7,166 bases of DNA from Sulfurimonas sp. (GTDB lineage Bacteria; Campylobacterota; Campylobacteria; Campylobacterales; Sulfurimonadaceae): the NCBI GenBank assembly GCA_024762745.1, contig JANTGV010000053.1, positions 1-7,166 on the forward strand, in the 5' to 3' direction. Positions 1-7,098 of this stretch are shown here, in pieces; the stretch's first letter is position 1, and each line of letters begins with the position of its first letter. A program made the position numbers and the translations under genes. The notes beneath the pieces were generated by a model that made no database searches, was not told the origin of the DNA, and saw only the letters and a list, made by a program, of their open reading frames with translations.

Positions 1-2358
1 AATCCGGATATAGAGTATAAAAATACACATAGAATGCGGCATAAAGATGGACATTGGGTCTGGATACTTGATCGTGGACAGGTGGTATTTGACAGTAGTG
101 GCAAAGCTGTAAGAATGGTCGGTTTTCATACAGATATCACTGAGATAAAAGAGCTTGAAACGCAGCTAAGAGAGAATGAAGAGATATATTATGACTTTTT
201 TGAACATACGAAAAGTGCAAATATTATGTATGAAACAGATGATGATGGAAAAACATTTAAAATAAAAAACTTGAATTATCTTGTTGAAAAACTGGAAAAT
301 GTTAAAAGAGAAGATATTGTAGGCAGACGGGTTGATGAAGTTTTTTCTGGTGTTGAAGAGTTTGGACTACTGGATATTTTTAGAGATGTATACAAGAGCG
401 GTAAACCGTTTAGTATGCCGATGAGTTTGTATGAAGATGACAAAAGGGTTGTATGGAGAGAGAACTATATTTTTAGACTATCAAATGGAGATATAGTTGC
501 TTCCTATGAAGATAGAACGAAAGAGAGAGAACTTGAACTTCTTTTAAATAATATTATAAACTCGATAGAAAATATTATTTTTGTTAAGGATAAAAATTTT
601 AAATTTATTGAGTGTAATAATGCTTTTGAGAAGTTTATGCAGAAACCAAGAGAAGAGTTTATAGGGAAAAGTGACTATGACTTTTTTGATAAAGAGTTTG
701 CCGATGGTTTTAGGATGAGTGACAAAAAGGTTATTGAGTCTGGAGAGATACAATCAAATTATGAGTGGATAGTGCAAGAAGATGGAAGTGAGGTCTACTT
801 GCTAACTGTAAAAGCACCTCTGCGTGATAGTTTAGGAAAAGTTTTTGGACTCGTTGGAAACTCTGTTGATATGACAGCTCAAAAACGACTAGAAGATGAG
901 TTACGAAGATCAAAACAGGAGTTTGATCTATTTATGGAGTATGTGCCTGCGAGTATATTTATCAAAGATGAAGGGAAGCATTTCATTTATGCAAATGAAA
1001 CAGGGAGAGACTTTTTTAATCACACGGATATTATCGGTCTTAAAGCTGAAGAGTTACTCTCTGATGAGGAAATAGAGTACTCAAATAAAATTGATGAAAC
1101 AATTTTACAAAACGGTTACTATGAAGAGATTCAGGAATTTACAAACTATGATAGTGAAAAACGTATCTATAGGTTAATGGGCTTTAAGATAGAGGATGAG
1201 AATCAAGCAAAAATAGGTACTGTAATAATTGACATTACAGATGAGTTCAAAGCACAATATGAAGTCAATAAATTAAAATCGGCACTCGATAGAAGTCCTG
1301 TGTCTGTTATGATGACGGACGTCGATGGGAATATAGAGTATATCAATCCAAACTACACTCGAATGAGCGGGTATACCTTAGAAGAGATTAGGGGAAAAAA
1401 TCCAAGAATAGTACAATCGGGTTTTACGAGTGATGCAGCATATGAAGAGATGTGGCAGCAGATAAGTTCAGGACATATATGGACATCCGATGTGAAAAAT
1501 ATCGCTAAAGACGGCACCGAGTTCTGGGAGGACTCTACTATAATTCCATCTTTTGATGAAAATGATAAAGTCAATGGGTATATCGCCTTTAAACTTGAGA
1601 TAACAGAGAAGATACATCTTCAAAAAGAGTTACATGATAAAGAGGAGCTTATGATAGCACAGTCTCGCCACGCTGCAATGGGGGAGATGATAAGCATGAT
1701 AGCTCACCAGTGGAGACAGCCTATAAGTGTAATAGCAATGGATGCTAATAATATCTTAGCAGATATAGAACTTGAAATGCTTGAAGAGGGGAGTCTAAAA
1801 AGTACTTCAAAGGATATAATCAAACAAACGCAGGAGCTCTCAAATACTATAGATGATTTTAGAAATTTCTTTAGGCCTGAAAAAGAGGCTCAGGAAGTGA
1901 GAGTTCAAGAGCTTTTTGATGATGCTTTAGCTGTTATAGGAAAGTCTCTGGAGAGTTCTCAGGTCGAGTTTAAGTTAGAAATAGATGAGAGTAAAAAAAT
2001 CACGACATTTAGTAGAGAGTTAATGCAGGTTTTTATAAATATAATCAAAAACGCAAAAGAGGCTCTCATTGAAAATGAGATTGAGAACAAAAAAATATCT
2101 GTCTATACTCAAAGTGATGATACGTTTTATGAGTTAAAGATTTGTGATAATGCTGGTGGTGTAAAGCTTGAGGATATGCAAAGCATATTTGATCCATACT
2201 TTACAACTAAAGGTCAAAAAAATGGTACCGGCTTGGGTCTCTATATGAGTAAAACAATAGTTGAGAAGCATCTACAAGGTTTCTTAAGTATAGAGAATGA
2301 TGAAGAGGGTGCTTGTTTTATAATTCAAATTCCGCATCAGCTTGATAGTAAGGAGTAG
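1..2358 (+). CDS. Multi-PAS sensor histidine kinase (5' partial)
   Basis: This is a cytosolic sensor kinase that should autophosphorylate on His and pass the phosphate to a receiver. The frame is open from base 1, and the codons before the ATG at 34 already read as the end of a PAS domain (Y-x-N-T-H-R-M-R-H-K-D-G), so that ATG is internal and the true start is upstream. Numbering from the ATG at 34: tail of a PAS/PAC to about 40, then PAS-like domains at roughly 46-166, 170-289, 292-408 and 412-530. A short signalling helix leads to the dimerisation domain with phospho-acceptor His558 (I-A-H-Q-W-R-Q-P), followed by the ATPase domain with N-box Asn673, D705-N-A-G-G, F719-D-P-Y-F and G731-T-G-L-G. 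All catalytic boxes look intact. No membrane segment is seen in the visible part, and there is no C-terminal receiver. The diiron protein gene follows after 3 bp. The kinase call is firm; the ligand is unknown. Confidence 0.95.
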   Translation, partial: NPDIEYKNTHRMRHKDGHWVWILDRGQVVFDSSGKAVRMVGFHTDITEIKELETQLRENEEIYYDFFEHTKSANIMYETDDDGKTFKIKNLNYLVEKLENVKREDIVGRRVDEVFSGVEEFGLLDIFRDVYKSGKPFSMPMSLYEDDKRVVWRENYIFRLSNGDIVASYEDRTKERELELLLNNIINSIENIIFVKDKNFKFIECNNAFEKFMQKPREEFIGKSDYDFFDKEFADGFRMSDKKVIESGEIQSNYEWIVQEDGSEVYLLTVKAPLRDSLGKVFGLVGNSVDMTAQKRLEDELRRSKQEFDLFMEYVPASIFIKDEGKHFIYANETGRDFFNHTDIIGLKAEELLSDEEIEYSNKIDETILQNGYYEEIQEFTNYDSEKRIYRLMGFKIEDENQAKIGTVIIDITDEFKAQYEVNKLKSALDRSPVSVMMTDVDGNIEYINPNYTRMSGYTLEEIRGKNPRIVQSGFTSDAAYEEMWQQISSGHIWTSDVKNIAKDGTEFWEDSTIIPSFDENDKVNGYIAFKLEITEKIHLQKELHDKEELMIAQSRHAAMGEMISMIAHQWRQPISVIAMDANNILADIELEMLEEGSLKSTSKDIIKQTQELSNTIDDFRNFFRPEKEAQEVRVQELFDDALAVIGKSLESSQVEFKLEIDESKKITTFSRELMQVFINIIKNAKEALIENEIENKKISVYTQSDDTFYELKICDNAGGVKLEDMQSIFDPYFTTKGQKNGTGLGLYMSKTIVEKHLQGFLSIENDEEGACFIIQIPHQLDSKE
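2350..2355 (+). promoter_or_regulatory. Ribosome binding site of the diiron protein gene
   Basis: AAGGAG lies 6 nt before the ATG at 2362 and overlaps the last codons of the upstream kinase gene (stop 2356-2358). It fixes the start and suggests coupled translation. Confidence 0.7.
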
Positions 2359-2361
2359 GAA

Positions 2362-3099
2362 ATGAGTTTAGACTATGATAATGCTGTAACAATATTACGT
2401 GATATCTACTGGGTGGGATTTGAAGAGCGAGATACTAATCTACACTGTAACTCCTATGTACTCATAGATGATGATGAGGTGGTCTTTTTTGATACCGGTT
2501 CCATTCCTGATTTTCCTATTATTATGCGAAAAGTTTTAGAGGTAGTAGACTTTAAAACTGTTGGGGTAATTGTCGCATCACATCAAGACCCCGATGTATG
2601 TGGCAATATGGCGATTGTAGAAGATGTCATCGAGAATCCTGAACTCAAAATTGCAGTTCACTCAAATACTGCTAGACTAGTGAGGCACTATGGACTTAAG
2701 TCTGATATATACATTGTTGATGAACATGAATACAAGATAACTTTAAAGAGTGGCAGAGAGTTAGAGTTTATATATGCTCCATACTTACACTCACCGGGTG
2801 CGATTGTCACTTATGATAAAAAGACAAAAAGTTTGTTTAGCGGTGATATTTTTGGTGGCGTTTCTAAGGAGTGGAATCTTTTTGAAGATGAGAATCTCTT
2901 AGAAAATATGAAAGCTTTTCATCAGCTTTACATGCCAAGTAACAAGATACTCTGTAACTTTTTAAATAAGCTAGACTCTTATGAGATAGATAGAATCTTA
3001 CCTCAACATGGAAGTGTTATAGAGGGAGATAGTGTTCAAAAAGCTATAGAGTATTTAAAAACAGTAGAGTGTGGGATTGACCTTTTAGAGGAGGTGTGA
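2362..3099 (+). CDS. ODP-like oxygen-binding diiron protein (MBL fold)
   Basis: This 245-residue protein has a single metallo-beta-lactamase-fold domain and no signal peptide, flavodoxin or rubredoxin domain. Candidate metal ligands are His74, Asp76 and Asp78 (S-H-Q-D-P-D-V-C-G), His143 (Y-L-H-S-P-G), Asp162 (F-S-G-D-I-F-G-G) and His216 (L-P-Q-H-G). Their order and spacing match the diiron site of flavodiiron proteins (H-x-E-x-D, H, D, H), with Asp replacing Glu at the second position. They do not match the zinc-hydrolase motif H-x-H-x-D-H. Stand-alone diiron domains of this kind are known as ODPs; the Treponema denticola ODP binds O2 and regulates the chemotaxis kinase CheA. Here the gene sits between two histidine kinases, 3 bp after one and 1 bp before the other, so a sensor role for a kinase is inferred. 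Alternatives are an O2 or NO reductase needing an external electron donor, or a generic MBL enzyme. The fold is very likely, the ODP call likely, and kinase partnership inferred. Confidence 0.85.
   Translation: MSLDYDNAVTILRDIYWVGFEERDTNLHCNSYVLIDDDEVVFFDTGSIPDFPIIMRKVLEVVDFKTVGVIVASHQDPDVCGNMAIVEDVIENPELKIAVHSNTARLVRHYGLKSDIYIVDEHEYKITLKSGRELEFIYAPYLHSPGAIVTYDKKTKSLFSGDIFGGVSKEWNLFEDENLLENMKAFHQLYMPSNKILCNFLNKLDSYEIDRILPQHGSVIEGDSVQKAIEYLKTVECGIDLLEEV
3087..3094 (+). promoter_or_regulatory. Strong ribosome binding site of the second kinase gene
   Basis: AGAGGAGG lies 6 nt before the ATG at 3101 and inside the last codons of the diiron protein gene (stop 3097-3099). The match to the anti-Shine-Dalgarno sequence is nearly complete, suggesting efficient and coupled translation of the kinase. 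Confidence 0.75.
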
Positions 3100-3100
3100 C

Positions 3101-4027
3101 ATGACTTACGATAAAGATTTAGTAACAGAATCATCACAGCAGTTAAACGAAACACTTCTTTCAAATAGAAAAATGACAGAAAACTCCCTTCGTATGAGAG
3201 CTATGGCGTATTTGGCTCAGGCTAAAGCAAATCTGTTGACTGAGACTATCTTTGAGGTTGAGAGCAGTAGAAAGCATATGCAAGAGGAGTTGATTTATAA
3301 AGATGAGATGATGCTAGCACAATCTCGTAATGCTGCTATGGGTGAGATGATTAGTATGATAGCACATCAGTGGAGGCAACCTATAAGTGTAATAGCTATG
3401 GGTGCCAATAATATTATAGCCGATATTGAACTGGGTGATATTCAAGAGAATAGATTAAGAAAGTACACTACAGATATATTGGAGAAAGTAAAAGAACTCT
3501 CAAAAACTATAGATGATTTTAAAAACTTTTTTCGTCCTGATAAAGAACTTTCAAATGTTTTGATTACAGATGTATTTGATGATGTATTTTCGGTTGTTGG
3601 AGAGTCTTTAAGAAACGCAGGTATAGAGGTTAAAACAGAGTATTATAATGACAGAGTCTTTACTACATACTCTAGAGAATTGATGCAGGTACTTATCAAT
3701 ATCCTTAAAAATGCAAAAGAGGCTATTGGGCAATCTGATAAAATACAAAAGAGAATCTTAATAGTTACATATGAAGCAAAAGATGCTATAGGAATTAAGA
3801 TATGTGATAGTGGAGAAGGAATAGATGAAGAGATAATTAATAAAATTTTTGATCCCTATTTTAGCACAAAAAGTCAAAATGTAGGAACAGGGCTTGGACT
3901 GTATATGAGTAAAACAATTATAGAAAAGCATTTAAATGGTATAATAGTCGCATATAATATAAAAAGTGGTGCCTGTTTCGAGATAGAATTGCCGTATAAC
4001 TTACGAGTGGAGAATCATAGTGAGTGA
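3101..4027 (+). CDS. Soluble histidine kinase without a sensor domain
   Basis: This 308-residue kinase has an N-terminal helical stretch (about 1-75), a dimerisation/phospho-acceptor domain with His89 (I-A-H-Q-W-R-Q-P) and an ATPase domain with N-box Asn204, D236-S-G-E-G, F250-D-P-Y-F and G262-T-G-L-G. It has no membrane segment, PAS, GAF or HAMP domain and no receiver. It is a close paralogue of the kinase at the start of the window: in the 41 residues beginning M-[IL]-A-Q-S-R, 37 are identical by eye. The likeness extends a little upstream into the signalling helix (E-L-x-x-K-x-E-x-M-x-A-Q-S-R). Since the protein has no input domain of its own, input from the diiron protein encoded 1 bp upstream is the natural inference, perhaps through the N-terminal helices. 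The gene overlaps the following receiver gene by 8 bp, making that receiver the likeliest phosphate acceptor. The kinase call is firm; input and partner are inferred. Confidence 0.93.
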   Translation: MTYDKDLVTESSQQLNETLLSNRKMTENSLRMRAMAYLAQAKANLLTETIFEVESSRKHMQEELIYKDEMMLAQSRNAAMGEMISMIAHQWRQPISVIAMGANNIIADIELGDIQENRLRKYTTDILEKVKELSKTIDDFKNFFRPDKELSNVLITDVFDDVFSVVGESLRNAGIEVKTEYYNDRVFTTYSRELMQVLINILKNAKEAIGQSDKIQKRILIVTYEAKDAIGIKICDSGEGIDEEIINKIFDPYFSTKSQNVGTGLGLYMSKTIIEKHLNGIIVAYNIKSGACFEIELPYNLRVENHSE

Positions 4028-4409
4028 CGTTAAAGCATTAAAAGAGAAAGTTAAAAATTTAAAAGTACTTTTTGTTGATGATGAAAAAGATGTTAGAAGT
4101 GGTACTGGTACGTTTTTAAGAAAATTTTTTGATGATGTTGTTGTCTGTGAAAATGGAAAAGAGGGTTTGGAAATATTTTCAGAAACTAGAGATTTCGATA
4201 TTGTTATAACAGATTTGTTAATGCCTGTCATGGATGGCCTTGAGATGAGCAGGGAGATTAGAAAGTTAAACCCAAATACGTTCATTATAGTCTTAACTGC
4301 GTCTAGAGGGACCAAGGATTTAGAAAAAGAAGTGAGTGATATTACACTGAAAAAACCTCTCTCCTTTGAAGATATGCTTGAACTTATGAGCAAGTTGGAG
4401 GAGAAATGA
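4020..4409 (+). CDS. Single-domain (CheY-like) response regulator
   Basis: This 129-residue receiver has no output domain. The start is a GTG at 4020, inside the end of the kinase gene, with GAGTGGAG at 4005-4012 as its ribosome binding site. Acidic residues Asp20/Asp21 (F-V-D-D-E), phospho-acceptor Asp65 (I-T-D-L-L-M-P), Thr93 (L-T-A-S) and Lys112 (K-K-P-L) form the usual active site. The stretch from Thr93 to Lys112 is 19 residues, compared with 22 in the next receiver, and lacks the customary G-x-D-G-Y/F segment, so the alpha4-beta5 face is unusual. The sequence resembles the receiver of the following protein from the leading V-K-x-L-K onward, which suggests a duplicated pair. It could be a phosphate shuttle or sink, or act by binding a partner. 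It overlaps the next gene by 4 bp (ATGA). Confidence 0.93.
   Translation: MSDVKALKEKVKNLKVLFVDDEKDVRSGTGTFLRKFFDDVVVCENGKEGLEIFSETRDFDIVITDLLMPVMDGLEMSREIRKLNPNTFIIVLTASRGTKDLEKEVSDITLKKPLSFEDMLELMSKLEEK
4397..4403 (+). promoter_or_regulatory. Ribosome binding site of the HD-GYP gene
   Basis: GGAGGAG precedes the ATG at 4406 and lies in the final codons of the receiver gene. Start and stop overlap as ATGA (4406-4409), a classic arrangement for translational coupling. Confidence 0.65.
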
Positions 4410-5923
4410 TTAATGTAAAAGAGTTAAAAGAGTTAAGTCAGCACTTTAAACTACTTTATGTAGAGGATGATAGCTCTATTAGGGGAGTTATGTGTGAGTA
4501 CTTAAAGAAATTCTTTCAAACAGTCACAGTGGCGAATGATGGAGTAGAAGGCTTAGAAGCCTTTAAAAAAGACAAATTTGATATTGTTATTACAGATCTC
4601 TCCATGCCAAAAATGGGTGGATTGGAGATGCTCAAAGAGATAAAAGAGCTAAATGAAAATCAAGCTGTTTTGATAACAACAGCACATAATGAACCTGAAT
4701 ATATGGGTGGAGCGATAAAGTCGGGTGTTGATGGGTATATTTTGAAACCATTTGACTTTATACAGTTAAATCAGGAGCTCTATAAGCTTGTACAAAAACT
4801 TTCTAAATTCAAAGAGAATGAAGAGTATAAAAATTATTTAAAAGAGATGGTTGACAAAAAAACTTCTGAAGTTTCTCACTTAATGGATATTCAAAAAGAC
4901 AACTATGATAAGACTCTCTATCTTATGGTTGATATGATAGAACAGAGAGATACATACACTGCAGGGCATAGTAGAAGAGTTGCACTCTACTCTAAGCTAA
5001 TAGCACAAAATATGGGTTATTCTCAAGAAGAGTGTGATTTGATTCATAAAGCCGGTATACTTCATGATGTTGGTAAAATAGCTACTCCTGATGCTATTTT
5101 ACTTAACCCTAAAAGTCTAAACGATATAGAATATGCACTTATACAAGAGCATGTTGAAGTAAGTTATAAACTGCTGAAAAATGTACCAATGTTCAACAGT
5201 TTTGCAGAAATTGTATACTCGCATCATGAAAGGTATGATGGAGCAGGGTATCCGAGAGGACTTAAGGCTGATAACATTACTCCTCTTGCGCGTATAATGA
5301 TAGTTGCTGATGCATTTGATGCAATGACAACGAACCGTATATACAAGGCGAGAAAGAGTATAGATGAAGCACTCGAAGAGATTGAGAAATTAGCATATAT
5401 ACAGTTTCATCCAGAGGTTGCAAAAGTTGCAAGAGCAGCTCTTGAAGATATAAAAATAGATGAGGAAATAACGCAGTTACCAAACACCAAACTAGAAGAA
5501 GAGAGGTTTGCCTATTTCTATAAAGATACTCTAAGTAATGCTTTTAATCAAAACTACTTAGATGTTATACTTATGAAAAACAGCTATGATTTAGTATACA
5601 AGTACATGAATATTTTTTCATTGAAAGATTTTTCCCAGTTTAACAAAAAAAATGGGTGGAAAGAGGGCGATAGCTTGTTGGCTGGATTATCTAATTTACT
5701 CTCAAAAAGTGCTGGAGACTCTCTAGTGTTTAGAGTATTTGGAGATGACTTCGTAATATTGAGCAGGGAAGAGTCTGATATGCAGGCGCTAAAAGCTGTT
5801 GTCGAGAATTTTCTTGAAGAGTTTAGTGTTTACTTTACTTTTCAGAAAGTTGATTTAAGTAAAACAAAAATTAGTCAGGTTGCACAAATTGAGAAGGTGC
5901 AACATGGTGTTAATCAGCTTTAA
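4406..5923 (+). CDS. REC-HD-GYP response regulator with degenerate GGDEF tail
   Basis: This 505-residue protein is the only visible effector of the operon. The receiver (about 1-130) has Glu20/Asp21/Asp22, phospho-acceptor Asp64, Thr92 and Lys114. A helical linker (about 131-165) leads to an HD-GYP domain (about 168-350) with His189, H221-D222-x-G-K, His250, H274-H-E-R-Y-D-G-A-G-Y-P (274-284) and Asp303. All the usual metal-binding and signature residues are present, so it should hydrolyse c-di-GMP to pGpG or GMP. Residues about 369-490 look like a diverged GGDEF domain: Y-K-D-T-L-S-N-A-F-N-Q-N-Y-L corresponds to the D-x-L-T-x-x-x-N-R-x-x-L entry motif, L-K-D-F-S-Q-F-N to the metal/substrate Asp region, and F446-G-D-D-F to G-G-D-E-F. 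The altered signature suggests no cyclase activity, perhaps a GTP-binding or dimerisation role. Phosphorylation by either upstream kinase presumably controls phosphodiesterase activity (inference). Confidence 0.93.
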   Translation: MINVKELKELSQHFKLLYVEDDSSIRGVMCEYLKKFFQTVTVANDGVEGLEAFKKDKFDIVITDLSMPKMGGLEMLKEIKELNENQAVLITTAHNEPEYMGGAIKSGVDGYILKPFDFIQLNQELYKLVQKLSKFKENEEYKNYLKEMVDKKTSEVSHLMDIQKDNYDKTLYLMVDMIEQRDTYTAGHSRRVALYSKLIAQNMGYSQEECDLIHKAGILHDVGKIATPDAILLNPKSLNDIEYALIQEHVEVSYKLLKNVPMFNSFAEIVYSHHERYDGAGYPRGLKADNITPLARIMIVADAFDAMTTNRIYKARKSIDEALEEIEKLAYIQFHPEVAKVARAALEDIKIDEEITQLPNTKLEEERFAYFYKDTLSNAFNQNYLDVILMKNSYDLVYKYMNIFSLKDFSQFNKKNGWKEGDSLLAGLSNLLSKSAGDSLVFRVFGDDFVILSREESDMQALKAVVENFLEEFSVYFTFQKVDLSKTKISQVAQIEKVQHGVNQL

Positions 5924-5925
5924 AA

Positions 5926-7098
5926 CTACTTATACGCTTTTATATCTAACAGTAAGTTTTCGAGTGAAGTTCTATACTGCTCAAGTAGCGTCAAATAGCT
6001 TTTCTCAGTAGTATCACTGAGTGATGCCTTGATAACTTGCGAAATTTCATTGAGGTTATTTGCACCGATATTTGCCGTAACTCCAATAAGGTCAAGTAAC
6101 ATTTTATCTGCTTCGTCTAGTTTTCCACCTCTTAATAAGTCTCCAAGTTTCTGAGTGGAATCTCCATAATTAGAAACAAATTCATCCAAGATTTCATGAT
6201 AGAAGCCTTCATCTCCACCGCATATCTCTAGGCCTTGATCTCCATCTAACTCTTTTGTTACATAGACATTAACGAACTCTTCATCATTTTCTTCTTCAGC
6301 AGCATCCTCAGGAATTGAGTATGCATAAAGAATGTCATAGAGTGCTTCCATTCTCAATGGTTTTTCAAGATGTTCACTCATTCCTGCTTCACTCATTTTT
6401 TTAATATCATCAGCAGCCGTATCACCACTAAGAGCAACAACAAGTATATGTGCATAATCAGGATTTTCCCTAATAGCACGTGTAGCTTCAAAACCGTCTA
6501 TTCGAGGCATATGTGCATCCATGAGTATAAGTAGGAAATCACTATCTTTTTCTAAAATATCTAAACACTCTTGGCCATCATCAGCAATGCTAACCTCAAT
6601 CCCTGTATCTGCTAAAAGACCTTTGATAACTTTTTGGTTGATTATATTATCTTCTGCTACTAAAATTCTCGTTCCGGCAAACTCTTTAAAGTTCTCTTTT
6701 GTTATCTTGCCATGTTCTGGTACATCCCTTTTAGGGATTTTATGTTCCTGTTGGATAGGTTCTATATTGTCTTTATTTCTCTGTTTAGGAGTCTCTCCAA
6801 ATGAGCCTTCTTCTGCACCTTCAAAACTCTCTTCAGGTTTTTCTTCTATAGTTTCAGCTGCCTCTTGTTGTAGTGTATCTTCAGGTTCTACAGTCTCTGG
6901 AGTATCATACTCATCAACCAAAGTTTCTTGCGTTTCACTCTCTTTAGTCTCCTGTAGATCTTCTTCATTTTGCCCAGCTTGAGTCTCTTCTGGAGTCTCA
7001 TCTTGCTCGGGAGTTTTTTTGTTTGTCATCAGGTATATCAGTATAACCACTAAAACTGCCACAAGCGCAAAAAGCTCTGTTTGATACTGTTCCAACAT
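5926..7098 (-). CDS. Membrane-anchored receiver with His-less Hpt-like domain
   Basis: This 390-residue protein begins with a hydrophobic segment at about 9-24 followed by N-K-K, consistent with an N-out, C-in single-pass anchor. Residues about 28-130 are a low-complexity linker rich in Glu, Thr, Gln and Pro (28 acidic residues in 31-100). The receiver (about 143-262) has Glu149/Asp150 (V-A-E-D-N), phospho-acceptor Asp194 (I-L-M-D-A-H-M-P), Ser224 and Lys246 (E-K-P-L), and resembles the receiver of hybrid kinases. Residues about 285-390 resemble an Hpt helical bundle (G-D-E-G-F-Y-H-E-I-L, then L335-D-L-I-G-V-T-A-N-I-G-A). The usual H-x-x-K-G is replaced, with Leu335 where His belongs and Ile338 for Lys, so it should not relay phosphate. 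No kinase or DNA-binding domain is present. The ATG at 7098 is preceded by AGGAAA (7103-7108), and a start at Met24 would lose the anchor. The gene converges on the operon, and whether it works with it is unknown. Confidence 0.85.
   Translation of the reverse strand: MLEQYQTELFALVAVLVVILIYLMTNKKTPEQDETPEETQAGQNEEDLQETKESETQETLVDEYDTPETVEPEDTLQQEAAETIEEKPEESFEGAEEGSFGETPKQRNKDNIEPIQQEHKIPKRDVPEHGKITKENFKEFAGTRILVAEDNIINQKVIKGLLADTGIEVSIADDGQECLDILEKDSDFLLILMDAHMPRIDGFEATRAIRENPDYAHILVVALSGDTAADDIKKMSEAGMSEHLEKPLRMEALYDILYAYSIPEDAAEEENDEEFVNVYVTKELDGDQGLEICGGDEGFYHEILDEFVSNYGDSTQKLGDLLRGGKLDEADKMLLDLIGVTANIGANNLNEISQVIKASLSDTTEKSYLTLLEQYRTSLENLLLDIKAYK

What the first reader, a model, noticed from the sequence alone, without database searches (positions are those of the whole stretch)
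2362..5923. Diiron O2-sensor candidate wired to a sensor-less kinase and an HD-GYP output
Sequence shows an ODP-like diiron protein, a kinase core with no input domain 1 bp later, a lone receiver overlapping it by 8 bp, and a REC-HD-GYP protein overlapping that by 4 bp. Established: the ODP of Treponema denticola senses O2/iron and regulates CheA in chemotaxis; HD-GYP proteins degrade c-di-GMP. Inference: here the same kind of diiron sensor appears adopted by an ordinary HisKA-type kinase to control c-di-GMP, with no transcription factor in the cluster. This would be an ODP-based oxygen-to-c-di-GMP two-component system.
Basis: partly seen in the sequence, partly recalled or inferred. Interest (0 to 1): 0.72.

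Follow-up and report, generated by a model that had tools for sequence, protein, structure and literature searches.

The report
Split diiron sensor for signalling enzymes
A small iron-containing sensor protein, probably for oxygen or a related gas, appears to plug into a conserved and so far unnamed segment at the front of a neighbouring signalling enzyme, and the same sensor-and-segment pair recurs in distantly related bacteria with different enzymes attached.

Summary
The gene order is real and the first gene is a genuine ODP-family protein with all six diiron ligands. Its first ~65 residues ("HKn", my label) are a conserved segment without a convincing Pfam, NCBIfam or PDB match. Of 41 named ODP loci, 38 carry HKn at the start of the next gene (one miss, one contig end, one unrelated ODP). 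Outputs differ: HK, hybrid HK, GGDEF, GGDEF-EAL. Searched by HKn alone (1,555 genome-searches), 33 of 34 strong places have ODP directly upstream; the 34th is at a contig edge. In 18 clade orthologues HKn is 72-100% identical while the ATPase domain is 42-53%. Other ODPs are fused straight to HK or GGDEF and lack HKn (25 fused frames held). One distant locus (L008) repeats the window's set: REC-HD-GYP, ODP, HKn-kinase, lone receiver. Best reading: ODP docks on HKn in trans and controls the kinase, which signals to the receiver and the HD-GYP phosphodiesterase. HKn is rare in sampled Campylobacteria (1 of 298), so synteny across Campylobacterota, as proposed, is not met.

The parts
1..2358 (+). 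Multi-PAS histidine kinase (5' end outside the window), 3 bp upstream of ODP
   Evidence: (PAS domains, HATPase_c 4e-15; HisKA 24.8 bits, below its cut-off of 26.9); core 55% identical to the short kinase and in one 98/99-supported three-row group with it and the L001 core in a 17-row tree
2362..3099 (+). ODP-family diiron protein, putative trans-acting sensor
   Evidence: PF19583 E=2.1e-62; PDB 6qrq E=1.8e-41; H74 D76 D78 H143 D162 H216 invariant in 43 of 43 HKn-partnered full-length ODPs aligned
3101..3298 (+). HKn: N-terminal ~65-residue segment, proposed ODP-docking (input) domain
   Evidence: after ODP in 38 of 41 named loci; residues 21-60 are 72-100% identical in 18 clade orthologues; no convincing Pfam/NCBIfam/PDB match
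3299..4027 (+). HisKA + HATPase_c kinase core (AHQWRQP H-box)
   Evidence: HATPase_c 1.5e-17, HisKA 3.1e-6
4020..4409 (+). Stand-alone receiver (response regulator), GTG start, overlaps the kinase by 8 bp
   Evidence: Response_reg 1.4e-19
4406..5923 (+). REC - HD-GYP - degenerate GGDEF; predicted active c-di-GMP phosphodiesterase (HDVGK, HHERYDGAGYP), GGDEF signature reduced to GDDF
   Evidence: Response_reg 3e-25, HD_5 2.1e-39, GGDEF 2.6e-8; motifs

Best explanation
ODP and the ~65-residue HKn segment form a split, portable sensor. ODP (diiron MBL-fold protein) binds O2, or follows the iron/redox state of its diiron site, and docks on HKn at the N-terminus of the downstream enzyme, changing its activity in trans. 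In this window HKn sits on a HisKA kinase, so the signal would pass by phosphotransfer to the lone receiver (possible sink or relay) and to the REC-HD-GYP protein, which hydrolyses c-di-GMP; its GGDEF part is degraded and probably regulatory or inert. The neighbouring multi-PAS kinase, with a related core, may feed the same receivers. Shown by sequence: gene order, family of each part, the near-exclusive ODP-HKn linkage, swapping of outputs, natural ODP-HK and ODP-GGDEF fusions without HKn. Inferred: physical docking, the signal, direction of regulation, phosphotransfer, c-di-GMP effect.
For: ODP identity and ligands. Linkage from the ODP side: 38 of 41 named loci have HKn directly downstream. 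Linkage from the HKn side: 34 strong places (E<=1e-5) in 1,555 genome-searches; 33 have ODP directly upstream, 1 lies at a contig edge; 9 of the distinct pairs were not in the ODP-seeded set (with 40, 62, 69). Inside genomes: exactly one HKn match in 13 of 14 source genomes, and it is the ODP-linked one. Output swapping: of 28 HKn proteins scanned, 18 HK, 8 GGDEF (2 with EAL), 2 without an output domain. Inverted conservation: HKn residues 21-60 are 72-100% identical to the window in 18 clade orthologues, HATPase 42-53%. Fusions that would make HKn unnecessary: ODP-HK and ODP-GGDEF; no HKn in the 25 fused frames held. c-di-GMP: intact HD-GYP motifs here; L008 has a REC-HD-GYP gene 88 bp upstream of ODP and a lone receiver after the HKn kinase; fused ODP-HK L144 is preceded by REC-GGDEF and a lone receiver. 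Precedent for trans action: ODP is described as an auxiliary subunit that interacts with its cognate chemoreceptors (PMC6978683, one passage; PMC7666581, passages).
Against: One close relative, L001 (Sulfurimonas MAG, ODP 86% identical), has no HKn gene after ODP and no HKn match in its 1.5-Mb genome. The HKn model was itself built from ODP-linked rows, so unlinked, more divergent HKn forms could be missed; three weak matches (E 1e-3 to 1e-5) have no ODP nearby. Most loci are MAG contigs, and several are near-copies (L006/L010/L011/L023, L033/L035). Distance correlation ODP-HKn (r=0.62, 0 of 2000 permutations) can come from shared ancestry. The full gene set with HD-GYP on the same strand next to the pair was seen only here and in L008; L012, L022 and L025 have HD-GYP genes nearby on the opposite strand. 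Signal not tested; some fused relatives lie beside heme-d1 type genes, which points to NO as well as O2.
Confidence: 0.62

Rival explanations
1. Same split sensor, but the physiological ligand is NO (or nitrosative state), not O2: ODP is a single-domain relative of flavodiiron NO/O2 reductases and would work like the H-NOX and NosP systems.
For: NCBIfam's best hits for ODP are flavorubredoxin NO reductases (48.9 bits, cut-off 635), and for the HD-GYP protein the NosR family (188.9 bits, cut-off 400), both below cut-off. Seven of eleven fetched fused ODP-HK loci show one upstream gene-length pattern; in the one scanned, L133, these are cytochrome c, radical SAM/SPASM, cytochrome D1 and tetrapyrrole methylase genes, as for heme d1 of nitrite reductase.
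Against: The characterised ODP is described as an O2/iron sensor (PMC7666581 and PMC6978683 passages); nothing in the window points to denitrification; those neighbours belong to the fused group, not to the HKn-partnered ODPs.
Confidence: 0.2
2. ODP is an O2/NO-consuming or iron-handling enzyme that merely shares the operon; HKn is an ordinary dimerisation or signalling helix, and the real sensor is the multi-PAS kinase upstream.
For: The two kinase cores are related (55%) and could share receivers; HKn looks helical (0.25% Pro, 1.1% Gly in 40 core columns); L001 has the PAS kinase and ODP without HKn.
Against: HKn follows ODP across phyla with unrelated outputs and is not found elsewhere in the same genomes; relatives fuse ODP directly to HK or GGDEF. 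The window ODP lacks the flavodoxin domain of flavodiiron enzymes.
Confidence: 0.1
3. The kinase talks mainly to the lone receiver, which acts on something else (flagellar switch or a distant output); HD-GYP is served by the multi-PAS kinase, so the ODP branch does not control c-di-GMP here.
For: Two receivers and two kinases in one gene run; partner choice cannot be read from the sequence.
Against: Overlapping genes HK-REC-REC/HD-GYP (8 bp and 4 bp) suggest one unit; other HKn proteins carry GGDEF/EAL domains themselves; REC-HD-GYP stands beside the pair again in L008.
Confidence: 0.08

Closest known systems
Treponema denticola ODP (TDE2498) with MCP TDE2496
   Same: Same Pfam family; 6qrq is the top solved structure (its species is recalled). 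Sensor is a separate protein genetically coupled to a partner without sensing module (PMC7666581, passages) that it contacts directly (PMC6978683, one passage).
   Different: There the partner is a chemoreceptor acting on CheA; here it is a HisKA kinase with HKn, and no MCP or CheA is in the window. Whether TDE2496 has an HKn-like segment was not examined (sequence not fetched).
H-NOX (and NosP) trans-acting gas sensors with partner HK or DGC
   Same: Stand-alone gas sensor that regulates a separate c-di-GMP enzyme (PMC8846402, passages on H-NOX partner proteins); closest in how it works. NosP and kinase details are recalled.
   Different: Heme sensors of other folds (recalled); here a non-heme diiron MBL protein and a dedicated partner segment.
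[quoted passage not shown]
   Same: Diiron O2/redox control of c-di-GMP enzymes (PMC9388753 and PMC8846402, passages).
   Different: Hemerythrin domain covalently fused to the enzyme; no kinase relay, no separate sensor.
Campylobacterota ODP-HK and ODP-GGDEF fusions (found here)
   Same: ODP family joined to the same types of output; same AHQWRQP kinase type.
   Different: Single chain, no HKn, distinct ODP groups (SH-aLRT 97 and 98); in 11 of 11 fetched loci L133-L143 the HK gene is followed by a REC-bearing gene, in the one scanned (L133) REC-Trans_reg_C.

Membership tests
ODP (PF19583) | Match to the ODP profile above its cut-off | tested here: met
   210.9 bits against a cut-off of 27.2
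ODP (PF19583) | Six diiron ligands H-x-D-x-D, H, D, H in register with 6qrq | tested here: met
   Alignment; 43 of 43 HKn-partnered ODPs aligned keep all six. Which residues are ligands is recalled from the FDP/ODP literature
ODP (PF19583) | No flavodoxin domain (separates it from flavodiiron proteins) | tested here: met
   245 aa, only ODP/Lactamase_B matches; L041 shows the contrast, ODP plus Flavodoxin_1
ODP (PF19583) | Binds iron and forms an O2 adduct | not testable with these tools
   Needs purified protein
Treponema-type ODP chemotaxis system | Adjacent MCP partner / CheA | tested here: not met
   Partner is HKn-HisKA; no MCP domain among Pfam matches of six window proteins
H-NOX / NosP system | Heme-binding H-NOX or FIST sensor domain | tested here: not met
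   No such Pfam match in the six window proteins
H-NOX / NosP system | Separate sensor gene adjacent to HK or DGC | tested here: met
HisKA two-component kinase | HisKA H-box and HATPase_c | tested here: met
   Both above cut-off for the short kinase (HisKA narrowly, 27.6 against 26.9)
HD-GYP phosphodiesterase | HD and HHExxDGxGYP motifs | tested here: met
   HDVGK at 220, HHERYDGAGYP at 273
Active diguanylate cyclase | GG(D/E)EF signature | tested here: not met
   GDDF at 446
HKn (new segment) | Match to a known Pfam, NCBIfam or PDB family | tested here: not met
   29 rows: Pfam hits in at most 3 rows (best E 0.0022), NCBIfam in at most 2 rows (best E 0.0019), no agreement between rows; no PDB hit at E<=1

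The most novel reading that the evidence does not exclude
HKn is a dedicated docking socket for a diiron sensor: nature uses one ODP-HKn cassette as an interchangeable gas/redox input for kinases, hybrid kinases, GGDEF and GGDEF-EAL enzymes across seven named phyla, the same role that direct ODP fusion plays in Campylobacterota and Zetaproteobacteria.
Probability: 0.75. Interest if true: 0.8.

Novelty: new variant of a known kind. Interest (0 to 1): 0.72.

Why it matters
It would turn ODP from a chemotaxis oddity into a general non-heme trans-acting gas/redox sensor, and it explains a class of apparently sensor-less kinases and cyclases. HKn gives a sequence tag by which ODP-controlled enzymes can be recognised, and it defines a small, testable protein-protein interface that could link oxygen (or NO) to c-di-GMP.

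Tried and rejected
Structure of an ODP-HKn pair: an alignment was prepared, but the predictor was switched off. A region search for more HKn proteins gave one hit, the query's own protein. No whole genome is held for the window. L041 was rejected as a relative of the system: it is an ODP with a flavodoxin domain. The weak HKn hits L067, L068, L110 have no ODP in their flanks and are treated as chance or remote matches. Dropped: conserved synteny throughout Campylobacterota. Dropped on re-checking: that the window kinase is a local duplicate of its PAS-kinase neighbour; the two cores group together in a 17-row tree, but the protein search lists kinases without HKn that are as close or closer (P0161 62%, P0143 67%, P0141 69% over part of the length). 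ODP-HKn residue covariation was not attempted (43 full-length pairs are too few). Labels used in the 85-row tree: for L117, L120, L122-L124, L126-L128 'fused HK' was read from the sequence or from similarity, and for L077, L079, L130, L131, L147 'fused GGDEF' rests on similarity or clade, not on a Pfam scan. Ten of the 38 HKn proteins of the named loci were not scanned with Pfam (L005, L010, L011, L023, L027, L032, L034, L035, L038, L040).
Full report
WHAT IS THERE. The window holds, in one direction and almost without gaps, a multi-PAS kinase (5' open to 2358), an ODP-family protein (2362-3099), a short HisKA kinase (3101-4027), a lone receiver (4020-4409) and a REC-HD-GYP protein with a degraded C-terminal GGDEF domain (4406-5923). 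A sixth gene (5926-7098) runs the other way.

ODP. The protein matches PF19583 at 2.1e-62, and its best solved relatives are the oxygen-binding diiron proteins 6qrq and 6qnm. The six ligand positions H74, D76, D78, H143, D162, H216 align with identical residues of 6qrq and are invariant in 43 of 43 HKn-partnered ODPs and 24 of 24 fused ODPs aligned (one of 16 'other' ODPs has Tyr at 216). Which residues bind iron is recalled, not measured here.

THE KINASE HAS AN INPUT. Of 41 named loci fetched with an ODP alignment, 38 have, as the next gene on the same strand, a protein starting with the same ~65-residue segment, consensus NRxLxEKALxMRCLAYLSQVKAxLLTxTI. The remaining three are L001 (none), L031 (contig ends 74 bp after ODP) and L041 (a flavodoxin-bearing relative of another kind). 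In L005 the segment is split by a frame break, in L027 it is cut by the contig end, in L040 only the tail of ODP is held. Near-copies included, the 38 are 36 different pairs. I call the segment HKn. It has no convincing Pfam, NCBIfam or PDB relative, and 40 core columns contain 0.25% Pro and 1.1% Gly, so it is probably helical. It has no conserved His, which argues against metal binding by HKn itself.

HKN SITS ON DIFFERENT OUTPUTS. Of the 38, 28 HKn proteins were scanned with Pfam: 18 carry HATPase_c with a HisKA match (HisKA below its cut-off in L009, L014, L036; some with PAS, receivers or Hpt), 8 carry GGDEF (two, L006 and L021, also EAL), and 2 carry no output domain: L002 (135 aa, HKn alone, followed by a PAS-HK gene) and L029 (HKn-PAS, followed by a HATPase-receiver frame and so perhaps one split gene). 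HKn thus goes with ODP, not with one type of enzyme.

SPECIFICITY TESTED FROM THE HKN SIDE. HKn alone was searched in 14 source genomes (13 with exactly one match at E<=0.01, none in that of L001) and, at E<=0.001, in samples drawn around source genomes; the group names are inferred from the record titles: class of G002, Campylobacteria (1 of 298), class of G011, Gammaproteobacteria (3 of 369), phylum of G014 (2 of 198), class of G010, Zetaproteobacteria (9 of 78, two of them weak), class of G004 (5 of 75), class of G008 (3 of 48), phylum of G007 (6 of 24, one weak), phylum of G009 (3 of 52), order of G013 (2 of 399). That is 1,555 genome-searches, a few genomes counted twice. They give 34 distinct strong places (E<=1e-5); 33 have ODP directly upstream (in two only the tail of ODP is held) and one, L103, ends at the contig edge. 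Its genome, G1003, is the only one with two matches, both at contig edges. Three weak places (L067, L068, L110) have no ODP in their flanks. After removing copies, 46 different ODP-HKn pairs remain including the window (47 rows, L005 counted twice); 9 were not in the ODP-seeded set (L059, L062, L064, L102, L104, L105, L106, L109, L112). These 9 are the more independent evidence, though the HKn model was built from ODP-linked rows.

CONSERVATION IS INVERTED. Of 7,013 relatives of the window's kinase the best 120 are listed; 20 of these carry HKn, two of them the window's own protein. In the other 18, residues 21-60 are 72-100% identical to the window's, HisKA 59-68%, and the ATPase domain only 42-53%. 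In an ordinary kinase the input usually changes fastest (recalled); here it is the part held most tightly, like ODP itself (78-89% in the 11 closest relatives). For five of those 11 ODPs a kinase hit has the same longest-contig length (64557, 66257, 7544, 8511, 10308), which suggests, but does not prove, shared contigs.

FUSIONS SAY THE SAME. In 248 genomes of the order of G001 (Campylobacterales), 47 hold an ODP at E<=1e-40; 45 of the 54 matches lie in open frames of 450 residues or more. Of eight such frames scanned, six are ODP with HATPase_c and a HisKA match (two with GAF or PAS between; HisKA below cut-off in L116 and L121) and two are ODP-GGDEF; four scanned Zetaproteobacteria frames are ODP-GGDEF. 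None of the 25 fused frames held has HKn. In a quick tree of 85 ODPs (SH-aLRT only) the fused-HK and fused-GGDEF groups each lie on one side of a branch (97, 98), and the HKn-partnered ODPs cluster (4 label changes, 28.8 in shuffles) without being one clean side; the tool warns of meeting long branches. The window's ODP lies with the HKn-partnered ones, apart from the fused ODPs common in Campylobacterales. Together with the rarity of HKn there this suggests lateral acquisition; that is inference.

ORIGIN OF THE KINASE. The window core groups with the neighbouring PAS-kinase core and that of L001 (98/99 in a 17-row tree, 55% identity), but kinases without HKn that are as close or closer are listed, so I claim only that HKn rides here on a Campylobacterota-type kinase core. 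L001, with PAS kinase and ODP but no HKn gene, is the one real exception.

SIMILAR CIRCUITS. L008 (Proteobacteria MAG) has, on one strand, REC-HD-GYP, ODP (with an internal stop), HKn-kinase, lone receiver and a REC-HK-REC protein. L012, L022 and L025 have an HD-GYP gene nearby on the other strand.

HOW IT WORKS. ODP, sensing O2 or iron/redox state, docks on HKn and sets kinase activity; the kinase phosphorylates the lone receiver and/or the REC of the HD-GYP protein. HD-GYP keeps HDVGK and HHERYDGAGYP, while GGDEF is reduced to GDDF, so the predicted effect is c-di-GMP breakdown. Steps from docking onward are inferred.

SIGNAL. T. denticola ODP is described as an O2 sensor coupled to an MCP without sensing module (PMC7666581, passages) and as an auxiliary subunit that contacts its receptors (PMC6978683, one passage). 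NO is a serious rival: seven of eleven fetched fused ODP-HK loci (L133-L135, L137, L139-L141) share an upstream gene-length pattern, which in L133, the one scanned, is cytochrome c, radical SAM/SPASM, cytochrome D1 and tetrapyrrole methylase.

LITERATURE. Searches listed no title or abstract on ODP with a HisKA kinase or GGDEF enzyme; listings only, apart from the passages cited. The 2019 PNAS paper on ODP is not held, so mention there cannot be excluded. The term ODP does not occur in two reviews of c-di-GMP sensing and hemerythrin sensors (searched by term, not read whole).

VERDICT.

Noticed in passing
window 5926-7098 (-): Protein with an N-terminal hydrophobic stretch, a receiver domain (Pfam 5.5e-21) and a C-terminal stretch that, read by eye, resembles an Hpt domain without its histidine.
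   Followed up: no
window 5525-5854 (+): GGDEF domain behind HD-GYP is degraded (GDDF), so only hydrolysis is expected from this protein.
   Followed up: partly
L133 530-6030; similar gene lengths in L134, L135, L137, L139, L140, L141: Fused ODP-HK plus a REC-Trans_reg_C regulator directly behind a cytochrome c, radical SAM, cytochrome D1 and tetrapyrrole methylase run (heme d1 type): hints at NO or nitrite respiration control. Only L133 was scanned.
   Followed up: partly
L136, L138, L142, L143: A second set of fused ODP-HK plus receiver loci lies beside a 569-572-aa divergent gene; in L138 and L143 it is a thiamine-pyrophosphate enzyme.
   Followed up: no
L145 4898-8505: A fused ODP-PAS-HK is followed by a second kinase whose core groups with it (100/99), a paired-kinase pattern as in the window.
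   Followed up: no
L093, L094, L095, L098: Another ODP clade in the Zetaproteobacteria sample sits next to a ~128-aa gene that in L093 is Roadblock/LC7; the neighbours in L094, L095 and L098 look alike by eye.
   Followed up: no
L044 3300-4645, L045 3300-4669: Distant ODPs on Pseudoalteromonas and Shewanella plasmids follow a ~205-aa gene, annotated 'chemotaxis protein' in L044, with no Pfam match in L045.
   Followed up: no
L042 4980-6499: Plasmid-borne ODP in Fusobacteria bacterium ZRK30 followed by two genes annotated GGDEF; the first has ~70 N-terminal residues without an HKn match.
   Followed up: partly
L001 2895-3498: In the closest named relative the gene after ODP is unrelated to HKn (reads like an ATPase by eye); a contig join error or an insertion cannot be told apart.
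   Followed up: no
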